Of a stretch of DNA of 64,000 bases, positions 4,358 through 15,745 are shown piece by piece. Numbering within the stretch: position 1 is the stretch's first letter; every line of letters begins with the position of its first letter. Under the pieces are notes generated by a model. The model ran no database searches and had not been told where the DNA came from. It saw only the letters and a program-made list of their open reading frames with translations. The translations under genes were made by a program, and so were the position numbers. Source of the stretch: Opisthorchis felineus (lineage: Eukaryota; Platyhelminthes; Trematoda; Opisthorchiida; Opisthorchiidae); NCBI GenBank assembly GCA_004794785.1, contig SJOL01009480.1, positions 280,238 through 344,237 of the forward strand. The letters run 5' to 3'.

Positions 4358-4438
4358 CTAAACCACAAAAACAAAGAGACAAAGAAACAAAATCGTCAGA
4401 AACACAACCATCTGTACTAAAGCAGAAAACGCCTACCA

Positions 4439-4495
4439 TCATCATCATCATCGATAGCATGACACCAGTGTTCAACACCGATGCTTCACTGCCGT
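4439..4495 (-). mobile_element. Solo LINE 3'-hairpin retroposon (57 bp) with 11-bp target-site duplication
   Basis: On the minus strand the unit reads acggcagtgaagcat.. to a (GAT)n tail. It is bracketed by perfect copies of aacgcctacca at 4428-4438 and 4496-4506. The body (4452-4495) folds as an imperfect hairpin around GTGT-TGA-ACAC. The same sequence occurs at 15126-15180 and as the 3' terminus of the RTE LINE at 12442-14065. In translation it gives the peptide GSEASVLNTGVMLSMMMMM. It lies only about 80 bp from the 3' splice site of its ACAP intron. Confidence 0.85.
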
Positions 4496-5040
4496 AACGC
4501 CTACCAAGCACAACTAAAAGCAGGACTCCAACGGCTAGCTTGAGCAAGGTTCACGGAAGTAGGTGAAGTGGATCAAAGGATATAGCCCAAGCATGGTCAA
4601 AAATCGATAATACGTCATTACCATTGAAAGATGAAAAAACTGTCCGAATACTGACCAAGTGAGTTTCTTATGCAGCATCATTGCAGGTCACTTGTGTTAG
4701 TGATCATGATAATTCGCTCAATGAACGGAATCCGTCTGTGAGTTCACTGTCAGGAACTTGCGAAGTGTCGTGTATTTGTGTACTATAAATGTACAGTGAC
4801 TCCCCAGCAAAGAACACTGAGGTGGCCTGGATTGCGGAGCAATTCTGACAGACCGTGAAAAGAAACATTTGCACACCGATATTATTACTTTGATTTGCAT
4901 TGTGTTACGACAGCCTACAAGCTTTAGTGTGCACATTCATACACCGGAAGTGCACGGCCCTGGGAAAACAGGCATTATGACCTATCCATGTATGAATAGA
5001 CGTAATGCTAACTTTTCAGCCACAAGGCACATGTGCCCAT

Positions 5041-5115
5041 TTGCTTGGGCAACCTGCCAGTACGTCATTCCTCGTACTTCCTTCGGGTAGCATGACAGCT
5101 AGGCACGGAAAGAGT
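5041..5115 (+). repeat. SINE body fragment (same family as the SINE at 5965-6181), opposite strand
   Basis: The stretch gcttgggcaacctg.. through cttccttcgggtagcatg and agctaggcacggaaag matches the minus-strand body of the SINE at 5976-6170, with scattered substitutions. The tRNA-like head is not recognisable upstream, so this copy is truncated or decayed. Confidence 0.65.
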
Positions 5116-5234
5116 GTTACAGCTTAACGACTAGAAAACGACGAGAAAATGGCGGAAAACGAACTAGTATGAGGAAAAAATACGGATTTCCAAGACTACG
5201 TATTATGTTGACGAGGATTCCGGACAGCGCACTA

Positions 5235-5296
5235 CTGGTTTCGCCCCTCTTTGGGATCATCAAATAGGCTTGGTCCCCAGACCTCCGTCAGGCTTA
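5235..5296 (+). repeat. Short dispersed repeat, copy 1 (partner at 19774-19835)
   Basis: Both copies share ggtttcgccc, then a short spacer, ttggg, a variable centre, tcccc and ccgtcag near the end, over about 62 bp at roughly 70% identity by eye. The family is unknown; it may be a remnant of a longer short element. Confidence 0.45.
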
Positions 5297-12441: not shown

Positions 12442-12510
12442 TCATCATAATAATCATCAACATCATCGACAGCATGACATCAGTGTTCAACACCGATGCT
12501 TCACTGCCGT
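12442..12510 (-). repeat. 3'-terminal hairpin and trinucleotide tail of RTE copy B
   Basis: On the minus strand the body (12467-12510) reads ACGGCAGTGAAGCAT.. to ATGCTGTCG. CGGCAG and CTGTCG pair at the base and GTGT-TGA-ACAC forms the tip. It is followed by an irregular GATGATG/ATTATT tail. The unit lies about 110 bp past the ORF2 stop of RTE copy B. The same unit is found alone at 4439-4495 and 15126-15180. No target-site duplication is visible at this copy. Confidence 0.75.
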
Positions 12511-14065
12511 ACACCATGATTTATTCGAAAACCTTATTGTGAGAAGAATAAAGGTGGGAGGGGAAGAGACTTAGTGCTAGCTTACTACAATCATTCCGAG
12601 GTTACCGGAACCTCCAGACACTCATTCAGGTAATCGGGATAGAAACTGACAACAAGAACGCCATTGATATCGATTGGCAGTCATATCTTGCAATGTCTTC
12701 AACCAGGCGCAGTGGGGATCACGCGGTACCCATCCTGGAAGGCAAGTAGCACCGACAGCACCCAAACGTTTCATAATCTCCTTCATACCCCTCTGCCATG
12801 TCAAGGGTTGGCCGCCTCTCTGCTTCCACCACTCTGAGTTGGGCATAGAAAACAGCACTCTCTTCGACAAATGATGGTTACTTATACGCAACACATGTCC
12901 GAACCAACGCAGCTTCTGGTGTTGGACACAGTCTTCAATGGGAGTACCCGTTGCACAACCAAAAACTCGCTTTCTAATTGCCTCGTTACGGATTCGCCGA
13001 CCTTACACTTTGTGGGTGCAAGGTGTTTACCAAAGTACTTGGGTCAGTTCATCCAAAAACACCTGCGCCTTCCTCTCCTCTTCGGAAACAAGGACGACGT
13101 CGTTTGCATATTCCAGATCAACAAGGCTTTCGTCAGAGGTTATTCGAACGCTGGGGTTCTGAAGACCTGCCAACGTTCGTCTCATTACCTCATCGATCAC
13201 TTGAGTAAATTGGAATGGGGAGAGTGGGCGTCTTTGATGGACACCGCTTCGTGTGCGGAAGCTTTTGGAGAGCTTTTCTTATAGTCTCACACGTCCAGAA
13301 GTCTGAGAATACAAAGAGCTTATTATGCTCAAAAACTTGCGGGGCATTGCTTGATGAGAAAGCGTGGCAAGGAGAAAGGAACGGTCAACCGAGTCGAATG
13401 CGCCTTGGAAATCCAGGAGTACTAGAATTGTGGGTCGTTTATACGTATGGCGATGTTCTAGCGCCTGACGGAGTGTGAAAATTTGGTCAATGCAACCCCT
13501 ACCAGGCCGGAATCCCGCTTGCTGCTCTCGAGTCAGTGTCTCACAAGCCACCATAAGGCGACAAAGCACAAGTGGCGTTAACAGTCTCGTTACGACCGGC
13601 GTCAAGCTGACCCCCCTGTGGTTACCACACTCGCTACGAGCCCCTTTTTTGAAAATGGTCCCTCCAGTTGTCTGGGGCAGATTCCGTTTCCAAAATGAAA
13701 GCAAACAGATCAGACAAACGCTGACTGAGGACTTCACCCTCATCTTTGAACAACGCGGGTGGGAGGCCATCCGGAAAGGAAGCTCGGTGGCGCTTGAGAG
13801 AACATATGCAGTCGTAGGCCGTAGGTGGCTTCACGTTCACGCGTTCTACATCAACTGTGGGCAGCTGGTGGCCATGACAATCGTTGTTCGAAGTATTCCG
13901 CCCACCGGTCGAGGCGTTCTTCTTTATTTAAGATGGTCATTCCTTTCTAATCCTTGATGGTTTCGCTCACAGGTGGTTTCCAGGGGCCGGTCGCATGGAT
14001 CAACTGAAATAATCTTCGGGCATTACCGGCTTTCTGGGCATCTTCCATTTCCTTGGCGAGACAGC
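12442..14065 (-). mobile_element. RTE-type LINE copy B, internally deleted but with its 3' end
   Basis: The minus-strand frames give [15 protein letters not shown] and PDGLPPALFKDEGEVL. A long RT segment follows (GNHRGVSLTP, QQAGFRPGRGC, LLDFQGAFDSVD), then PLSPFQFTQVIDEVMRR and EYANDVVLVSEE. The sequence then jumps from HLAPTKCKV straight to RRIRNEAIRKRVFGC and the RTE C-terminus (NSEWWKQRGGQPLTWQRG..CQFLSRLPE, stop near 12622). The connection and thumb region (YLGSCIS to CETWP) is deleted. The catalytic Y-A-D-D is YAND (13099-13110). After the stop come about 110 bp of 3' UTR, the terminal hairpin and a (GAT)n-like tail. Its 5' end is replaced by another repeat at about 14065. Confidence 0.85.
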
Positions 14066-14640
14066 GGTTGTTAGGGTTTTCTTGGGGGACCCTTCCCGGA
14101 GACAATGACTCAAAAGGCTGACCCACTTGGCTGTAGGGGGCCGGCCTGATGCGGCTGCACACAGCAGGTGCCTTTTGAGCATCACCAGACTCTTTGGTTT
14201 CAAAAGTATTTCGACTGTATTGAATAATGCGCCGGTAGTCACGGTCAACCGTTGGGCGATCAGAGTGTGCGGTTTTTTGGGCCGACCTTTTCTAACCCGT
14301 CCTTCCTCGAAGGAAGGCAGCATCGCCGCTTCCATAAATATGTGCATGCCGGTCGCCTGGGGGAAACGCCTTACTGCCTTCACACTCCTATCGCAGAGGA
14401 TAGTGCGACCTTACCTCCAGACTGCCTCGCACTACGATTACTCGCAGTACGGGGACTCGTTGTTCTTCGTCGGGCTGCTACCCGTTGGCCTTTCTGGTGT
14501 GGTTGAACCTTTAGGAACTGAGTTCCAGCCAGTATAACCCGCAGGATCATTGCAGCACAGAAGCCCGACCACCACGATAAGGTGACAGCTTTGGGCCGGG
14601 GTTCACCGGTGTTCCCGCAGCATATTAAAAGTTAGCCACA
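14066..14640. repeat. GC-rich block of unidentified dispersed repeats
   Basis: About 575 bp, distinctly GC-rich. Its left end (14070-14125) carries one sub-unit of the composite repeat at 12126-12441 and interrupts RTE copy B. The rest (14170-14640) has overlapping open frames on both strands but no domain I recognise. It is probably debris of one or more mobile elements between RTE copy B and the gypsy remnant. Confidence 0.35.
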
Positions 14641-14969
14641 CTCGGCTAGTACGCAAAGAAGGGGCCTGTAAGCGGACGCCTGAGGGCGAGACGGAATCGG
14701 TAGGGAGGCACATCATACCTACCTAAGGCCGTTGAGATATACATTAAGTATGCCAAACCACCGTCTATCCAAGAAAGTCTTTTTTCCATACCAAGAGATC
14801 GTTGGGAACAGACTACCGGGAGACACGTCCTGGCATTGCAATGTGAAACGGAACCAGCTACAGTCAAATTGAACCCTGTGAGATTTTCGTGACTTTGTGC
14901 CTCCGGACCACGCGATGCCGCTTCCACGTGGCTGGAAAACCTGCAGGATGTGGCACGCAACCATACATA

Positions 14970-15745
14970 ACACACAGGTGTTATCCAGCCTGTCAACTGC
15001 ACTTCCTGGGCAGCTCCCATTGTTGTGGCCAAGAAGACGAATACGAAGATCAGGAGTTGTGCTGATTACTCTACAGGGTTGAATGCTGCGCCAATTCACA
15101 TCAGTATCCTCCCCCAGTTCCAGAATTACGGCAGCGAAGCATCAGTGTTGAACACTGATATCATGCTGTCGATGATGATGCCAGTTCCAGAACGCCTACT
15201 TACCAAACTCAATGTTAGCACTTGCTTTGAAGAACTCGATCTGCTTGATGCCTACTTACAAATCGAAGTTGCAAATGGTTCAGAGGATCTTCTGACCGTT
15301 AACACGCACCGTGGTCTTTTCCAGTCCACTCGTCTTTCATTTGGAGCGAAAACGGTGCCAGCCATATTCCAACAGATCATGGACGTTATGCTCAATGGGT
15401 TAATAGGCGTTGAGGCGTACTTCGATGATACCATTGTGGCAGCCTCTGACCACGAAGAACTCTTCATCACTTAACCTCAGCACTTGATCGAATCCAGAAA
15501 TACGGCTTTCATCTCCGACCGGAAAAATGTGCATTCTTTCTTACATGTATCAAATACTTGGGTTTTACTTTCGATAAACCTGGCCAACATCCTGACCTGG
15601 ACAATATTCAGAAAATGTCACCACCGACGGATGTGCCCTTGCTGTCATCTTTCTTCGGGTTGGTGAGCCATTACAGCACTTTTCTAGCAGAAATGCATCG
15701 TGTTCGTGGTCCTCTCAACCATCTCTTAAAGAAGAATGTTCGCTG
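14970..15745 (+). pseudogene. Gypsy remnant 1: reverse transcriptase
   Basis: Motifs in order are WAAPIVVAKK, CADYSTGLNAA, FEELDLLDAYLQIEV (motif A with its Asp), STRLSFGAKTVPAIFQQIMD and AYFDDTIVAA (catalytic box 15418-15429, both Asp present). A stop after ELFIT (near 15473) and frame changes separate the thumb (KYLGFTFDKPGQHPDL, LSSFFGLVSHYSTFL). The catalytic residues survive but the frame does not. The stretch between GLNAA and PVPE contains a 55-bp retroposon plus duplication. Confidence 0.85.
15126..15180 (+). mobile_element. Solo LINE 3'-hairpin retroposon (55 bp) with 12-bp target-site duplication
   Basis: The unit starts ttacggcagcgaagc and ends gatgatgatg. It is bracketed by perfect ccagttccagaa copies at 15114-15125 and 15181-15192. 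The inner stem ATCAGTGT/ACACTGAT with a TGA loop is perfect here. The host sequence is gypsy RT, in which PVPE..LLTKL is normally continuous, so the empty site can be reconstructed by eye. This makes it the cleanest proof that the unit is a discrete insertion. Confidence 0.9.

What the first reader, a model, noticed from the sequence alone, without database searches (positions are those of the whole stretch)
4428..15192. A 55-57 bp hairpin plus (GAT)n unit retroposes on its own and is also the 3' end of an RTE LINE
Seen directly: two solo copies (4439-4495 and 15126-15180) have perfect 11- and 12-bp target-site duplications. Both start within two bases of the same point (ACGGCAG) and both end in GAT repeats. 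A third copy (12442-12510) is the 3' terminus of RTE copy B, after its stop codon. The body folds on itself: CGGCAG pairs with CTGTCG at the base, with GTGT-TGA-ACAC at the tip. Ordinary 5' truncation should give varied start points. A shared start exactly at the hairpin base suggests either one of the smallest SINE-like retroposons known, or RTE reverse transcription that regularly ends just past its own terminal hairpin. Translations of the unit (GSEASVLNTDVMLSMMM) may contaminate many gene predictions.
Basis: partly seen in the sequence, partly recalled or inferred. Interest (0 to 1): 0.85.

Follow-up and report, generated by a model that had tools for sequence, protein, structure and literature searches.

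The report
Tiny 3' stubs of a fluke retrotransposon
Two 55-57 base insertions in a liver-fluke-like genome look like very short leftover ends of an ordinary jumping gene, with a neat RNA hairpin, rather than a new kind of mobile element.

Summary
Two solo copies of a hairpin + (GAT)n unit (a: 4439-4495, 57 bp, minus; c: 15126-15180, 55 bp, plus) sit between perfect 11- and 12-bp target-site duplications. A third copy (b: 12438-12510, minus) is the 3' terminus of a decayed RTE-like LINE. The three bodies differ pairwise at 2-5 of 44 positions. Joining the flanks of c gives a gypsy-like pol frame open across the junction.

The idea of a mini-SINE of its own is not supported. A unit-only peptide search found 6 further copies, in 5 predicted proteins of Opisthorchis viverrini and Clonorchis sinensis. 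All 6 run past the hairpin base into the LINE 3' UTR. Copies a and c share no private change; one change in a recurs in a long copy.

Best reading: extreme 5' truncation of an RTE-like LINE, by target-primed reverse transcription from a 3' hairpin and GAT tail: a known kind of event. The shared start rests on two events; the genome-wide tabulation that would decide it could not be run (14 unanswered genome searches). A preferred stop at the hairpin base stays possible but unproven.

The parts
4428..4438 (.). Target-site duplication of copy a, first half (AACGCCTACCA)
   Evidence: Perfect 11/11 match with 4496-4506
4439..4495 (-). Solo copy a: hairpin body and five GAT repeats, 57 bp
   Evidence: Body BLAST, tract scan, fold
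4496..4506 (.). Target-site duplication of copy a, second half
12438..12510 (-). Copy b: hairpin body (12458-12510 with the first GATs) and impure GAT tail, 3' terminus of the RTE-like LINE
   Evidence: no duplication of its own as a solo insert; contiguous 3' UTR seen in 6 protein-borne copies
12520..12525 (-). AATAAA, ending 9 nt 5' of the first base of the hairpin unit in copy b
   Evidence: seen in this one DNA copy, function not tested
12438..14057 (-). Decayed RTE-like LINE (copy B), part with detected similarity: RT frame 13282-13830, 3' UTR with tail about 153-184 bp; its true 5' end is undetermined
   Evidence: RVT_1, homologues, tblastn extent, stops
15114..15125 (.). Target-site duplication of copy c, first half (CCAGTTCCAGAA)
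   Evidence: Perfect 12/12 match with 15181-15192
15126..15180 (+). Solo copy c: hairpin body and three GAT repeats, 55 bp, inserted in a gypsy-like pol frame
   Evidence: empty site; RVT_1 downstream
15181..15192 (.). Target-site duplication of copy c, second half

Best explanation
The unit is the 3' terminus of an RTE-like LINE of an opisthorchiid-like fluke: a 44-nt hairpin followed by GAT repeats. The LINE protein recognises this end, nicks a target, and starts reverse transcription at the GAT tail. Other copies run on into the 3' UTR and coding region. In a and c the copy ended 1-2 nt beyond the 5' base of the hairpin, leaving 55-57 bp stubs between target-site duplications. Shown here: identity with the LINE 3' end, the hairpin prediction, the duplications, the empty site of c, longer copies in related species. 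Inferred: the RTE clade, recognition of the hairpin by the protein, and why copying ended there (chance is the default).
For: Perfect duplications; flanks of c joined are open across the junction in a gypsy-like frame; copy b continues into RT sequence; 6 of 6 copies found by a unit-only query are longer than the solo form, 4 of the 6 with deeper LINE sequence; a and c share no change against b, and the position-31 change of a recurs, as read in protein, in the long copy of P0075; short truncated RTE ends with duplications and microsatellite tails are described in PMC2887409 (passages).
Against: Both solo copies start at the same point within 1 nt, at the hairpin base, which plain random truncation gives rarely for two copies (0.09-0.5% under assumed curves). 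No DNA copies outside the window were seen. In c the frame stays open through the insert as well, so the joined frame alone is not proof of the empty site.
Confidence: 0.82

Rival explanations
1. Truncation is not random: the template is shortened to the hairpin first. Either free 5' RNA is degraded up to the protein-bound hairpin, or mRNA 3' processing after the AATAAA 9 nt upstream cuts the transcript and the downstream piece (hairpin, GAT tail) serves as template. This gives a recurrent fixed-start class of about 55 bp insertions among other truncations.
For: 2 of 2 solo copies start within 1 nt of each other at the hairpin base; AATAAA at 12525-12520; a polymerase stalled by the hairpin should stop on its 3' side, so a shortened template explains a stop on the 5' side better (reasoning).
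Against: Two events only; 0 of 6 protein-borne copies start there; the AATAAA is seen in one DNA copy and is not resolvable in the protein-borne ones.
Confidence: 0.12
2. The unit is a very small SINE-like element with its own transcript and lineage, mobilised by the LINE.
For: Solo copies with duplications and a common start; SINEs with RTE tails are known (PMC3747384, passages).
Against: No head or promoter region: the insert is the LINE end and nothing else; no change private to a and c; 0 of 6 further copies are solo.
Confidence: 0.05
3. Chance: unrelated GAT microsatellites that look alike.
For: The tail is a simple repeat.
Against: Bodies match at 39-42 of 44 positions in three places; perfect duplications.
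Confidence: 0.01

Closest known systems
Truncated RTE 3' ends that make microsatellite-flanking families in Lepidoptera (PMC2887409; passages read)
   Same: Short RTE 3' ends with flanking duplications and a simple-repeat tail, dispersed in the genome; a widespread 44-bp core was traced to an RTE end; the authors warn that such ends can be mistaken for SINEs.
   Different: There the core includes the last codons of the ORF; here the stub is 3' UTR hairpin and tail only. No hairpin is mentioned in the passages searched (0 hits for 'hairpin' and 'stem').
Schistosome RTE-clade LINEs such as SR3 (PMC1291365; passages read)
   Same: Trematode RTE, short 3' UTR (177 bp in SR3), short-repeat terminus, duplications of 10-12 bp, 5' truncation common.
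   Different: SR3 ends in TAAG repeats; no hairpin is mentioned in the passages searched.
Stringent-type LINE tails, L2-clade ZfL2-1/ZfL2-2 and UnaL2 (PMC4176376; abstract and Introduction read)
   Same: A terminal 3' stem-loop next to the 3' end, the site the LINE protein binds.
   Different: Other clade; binding there is experimental, here the hairpin is only predicted.
SINEs with RTE tails (PMC3747384; passages read)
   Same: 3' part identical to a partner LINE, tail of short repeats.
   Different: Those carry a head (tRNA, 5S rRNA or the RTE 5' end); this unit has none.

Membership tests
RTE-clade LINE (source element, copy B) | Reverse transcriptase related to known RTE elements | tested here: inconclusive
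   RVT_1 E 2.6e-13 and fluke homologues (18 of the 19 rows that name an organism are flukes, the other is a bacterium on a 565-base contig), but no labelled RTE reference and no tree
RTE-clade LINE (source element, copy B) | Short 3' UTR ending in short tandem repeats | tested here: met
   About 153-184 bp with tail, ending in GAT repeats
RTE-clade LINE (source element, copy B) | Apurinic-type endonuclease upstream of RT in one ORF | not tested
   The frames of copy B are broken and similarity was followed to 14057 only
5'-truncated LINE retrocopy (copies a and c) | 3' end of the LINE, tail, and flanking target-site duplication | tested here: met
SINE | Head derived from a small RNA with an internal promoter | tested here: not met
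   The inserts are 55 and 57 bp; beyond the LINE end there is nothing but at most one or two bases
SINE | Own lineage with diagnostic changes | tested here: not met
   No change shared by a and c against b; only two solo copies, so a weak test
Stringent-type LINE tail | Terminal stem-loop | tested here: met
   Predicted fold, 1 and 0 of 500 shuffles as good for b and c, 48 of 500 for a
Stringent-type LINE tail | Stem-loop bound by the cognate protein and needed for retroposition | not testable with these tools
   Needs binding and retroposition assays

The most novel reading that the evidence does not exclude
The LINE regularly gives rise to a fixed 3' RNA fragment that begins at its hairpin, by cleavage about 10 nt after an AATAAA or by protection of the protein-bound hairpin, and this fragment is retroposed as a headless, promoterless element of about 55 bp that populates the genome with a constant 5' end.
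Probability: 0.08. Interest if true: 0.75.

Novelty: new member of a known kind. Interest (0 to 1): 0.3.

Why it matters
The stubs mark a likely minimal 3' recognition element of a fluke LINE (hairpin plus GAT), useful for repeat annotation and for cleaning gene models: five predicted proteins in two liver flukes carry it. If a peak of start points at the hairpin base were shown genome-wide, it would bear on how LINE templates are protected or cut before insertion.

Tried and rejected

DNA relatives elsewhere: 0 matches of body patterns in viral contigs and genome contigs. RT alignment A1 (10 of the 70 homologues) gave 33 pattern matches in viral contigs and 38 in genome contigs, none confirmed by tblastn. 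A 20-base pattern hit 4 viral contigs; none shows the rest of the body next to it: chance.

A second peptide search for longer proteins returned 1 of 4 candidates, the host ACAP-like gene, and no unit copy. In one search, 5 of 28 candidates passed E 10; the other 23 were not shown.

Rejected: b as a third solo insertion (no flanking repeat; contiguous 3' UTR in six other copies). Rejected: compensatory evolution of the stem; the few changes among the three copies keep some pairs and break others (read by eye), as in decay. A duplication for the whole of copy B was sought; only an 11-base match with one mismatch, inside its own LINE sequence near 14116, turned up, so its 5' end is undetermined.

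Papers: nine searches. For very short SINEs or 3'-only LINE copies, searches listed no paper on such a unit; they cover a few phrases in an open-licence library, so this is no proof of novelty.
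Full report
WHAT IS THERE. Three copies of one unit lie in the window: a (body with first GATs 4443-4495, minus), b (12458-12510, minus) and c (15128-15180, plus). On the 44-nt body a and b differ at 2 positions, b and c at 3, a and c at 5. Each is followed by GAT repeats: five in a, an impure stretch of about 30 bases in b, three in c. Joining the flanks of c gives HQYPPPVPERLLTKLNVSTCFEELDLLDAYLQIEV, open across the junction. 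The part downstream matches RVT_1. The element is decayed: the same frame has a stop 20 codons upstream, and the similarity further upstream lies in another frame. The filled site is also open in one frame (ORF 14971-15474), so the joined frame supports the empty site but does not prove it. That the joined motif is typical of gypsy pol is recalled, not tested.

THE FOLD. The body is predicted to fold as a lower stem CGGCAG/CTGTCG and, in a and b, a 10-bp upper stem with a TGA loop; c is predicted with a slightly different pairing. Of 500 dinucleotide shuffles, 48, 1 and 0 fold at least as well as a, b and c. The antisense strands fold less well (-6.0, -11.3, -16.5 kcal/mol). No Rfam family matches 12400-12640 with E up to 1.

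THE SOURCE ELEMENT. Copy b ends a decayed LINE on the minus strand. Its RT frame 13282-13830 matches RVT_1 (E 2.6e-13) and 70 database proteins; of the 19 rows that name an organism 18 are flukes, such as Opisthorchis viverrini T265_02092 at 80% over 58% of the query. Similarity to those proteins reaches 14057. The 3' UTR with tail is about 153-184 bp, depending on which of two frames ends the protein. I call it RTE-like by inference; no tree was made. The host is an opisthorchiid-like fluke, probably not C. sinensis itself: an ACAP-type exon is 95% identical over 532 residues to a C. sinensis protein (that protein stands for a cluster of 5).

COPIES ELSEWHERE. A query made only of the unit's three open translations (one sense frame, two antisense frames, two variants each) found 5 proteins with E up to 10 among 28 candidates: four of O. 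viverrini and one of C. sinensis. They hold six copies, all in one antisense frame. In all six the match continues past the hairpin base as Y-NHDLFESLIVKKRVKVDGEGT or a variant of its first part, which is the antisense of the LINE 3' UTR of copy b. Antisense LINE sequence from further upstream follows in P0071 (first copy), P0072, P0074 and P0075, directly or after a gap that may be a predicted intron or a deletion; in P0073 and in the second copy of P0071 the protein ends soon after. On the GAT side the 25 residues before the unit differ among the six, although P0073 has a separate piece of LINE sequence at its start. So independent insertions exist and none of these six starts at the hairpin base. 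The second query, for longer proteins, found none. The sample favours copies with open antisense frames and cannot stand for the genome.

IS THE SHARED START SPECIAL? Both solo copies begin at the T or A of TACGGCAG. If truncation lengths followed one of four assumed curves, two copies would coincide within 1 nt in 0.09-0.5% of draws, three in 0.3-1.4%, some pair of eight (2 solo and 6 others) in 2.7-13%, some pair of nine in 3.2-16%. The curves are assumptions, the pair was chosen after the fact, and the exact starts of the six others are unknown. I regard the coincidence as suggestive but weak. The finding's own test, the genome-wide tabulation, could not be run.

LINEAGE. a and c share no change against b; the change at body position 31 in a, read in protein as TPVFNTDASLP, recurs in the long copy of P0075. 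This fits repeated production from long elements and not a solo lineage, on few copies.

MECHANISM. Target-primed reverse transcription with recognition of a terminal stem-loop by the LINE protein is shown for L2-clade LINEs (PMC4176376, abstract and Introduction). Short RTE 3' ends with flanking duplications and microsatellite tails are described for Lepidoptera, with the warning that they can be mistaken for SINEs; there a widespread 44-bp core turned out to match the last codons of an RTE (PMC2887409, passages). Truncated copies are usual in Bov-B (PMC13295347, passages), and the SR3 paper says the same of non-LTR elements in general (PMC1291365, passages). In O. felineus 72.3% of repeats are counted as LINE and 0.4% as SINE (PMC6530080, passages). 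The unit fits this picture. Why two copies ended at the hairpin base is open. A polymerase stalled by the hairpin should stop on its 3' side, so a shortened template (trimmed to the bound hairpin, or cut after the AATAAA at 12525-12520) is the more interesting alternative; the AATAAA is seen in one DNA copy only.

VERDICT. Observation confirmed; interpretation partly supported. Most likely extreme 5' truncation of an RTE-like LINE, with a plausible recognition hairpin; a fixed-start class remains a testable reading of low probability.

Noticed in passing
583-1002, 2762-4357, 7628-7852 (minus): Pieces of an ACAP-type (Arf-GAP, coiled-coil, ankyrin, PH) host gene, 87-95% identical to a C. sinensis protein; copy a lies between two of them.
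   Followed up: partly
about 10041-11706 (minus): A second, more distant RTE-like element (RT 42% identical to the same homologue P0001, endonuclease-like frame at 10876-11706 without a Pfam match); no copy of the hairpin unit there.
   Followed up: partly
47951-50283 (minus): Frames of another LTR retrotransposon pol (RNase H-like Pfam matches at 48844-49476; the rest judged by eye).
   Followed up: no
34221-35054 (minus): Weak endonuclease/exonuclease/phosphatase match (E 5.7e-4, below Pfam's cut-off), perhaps another non-LTR element.
   Followed up: no
31042-31692: A run of 651 N with similar sequence on both sides in inverted orientation (matches of P0072 at 30849-30950 plus and 31040-30960 minus).
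   Followed up: no
5730-6182 (minus): An open frame beginning [20 protein letters not shown]; from recall a frequent spurious protein in fluke gene sets, probably repeat-derived.
   Followed up: no
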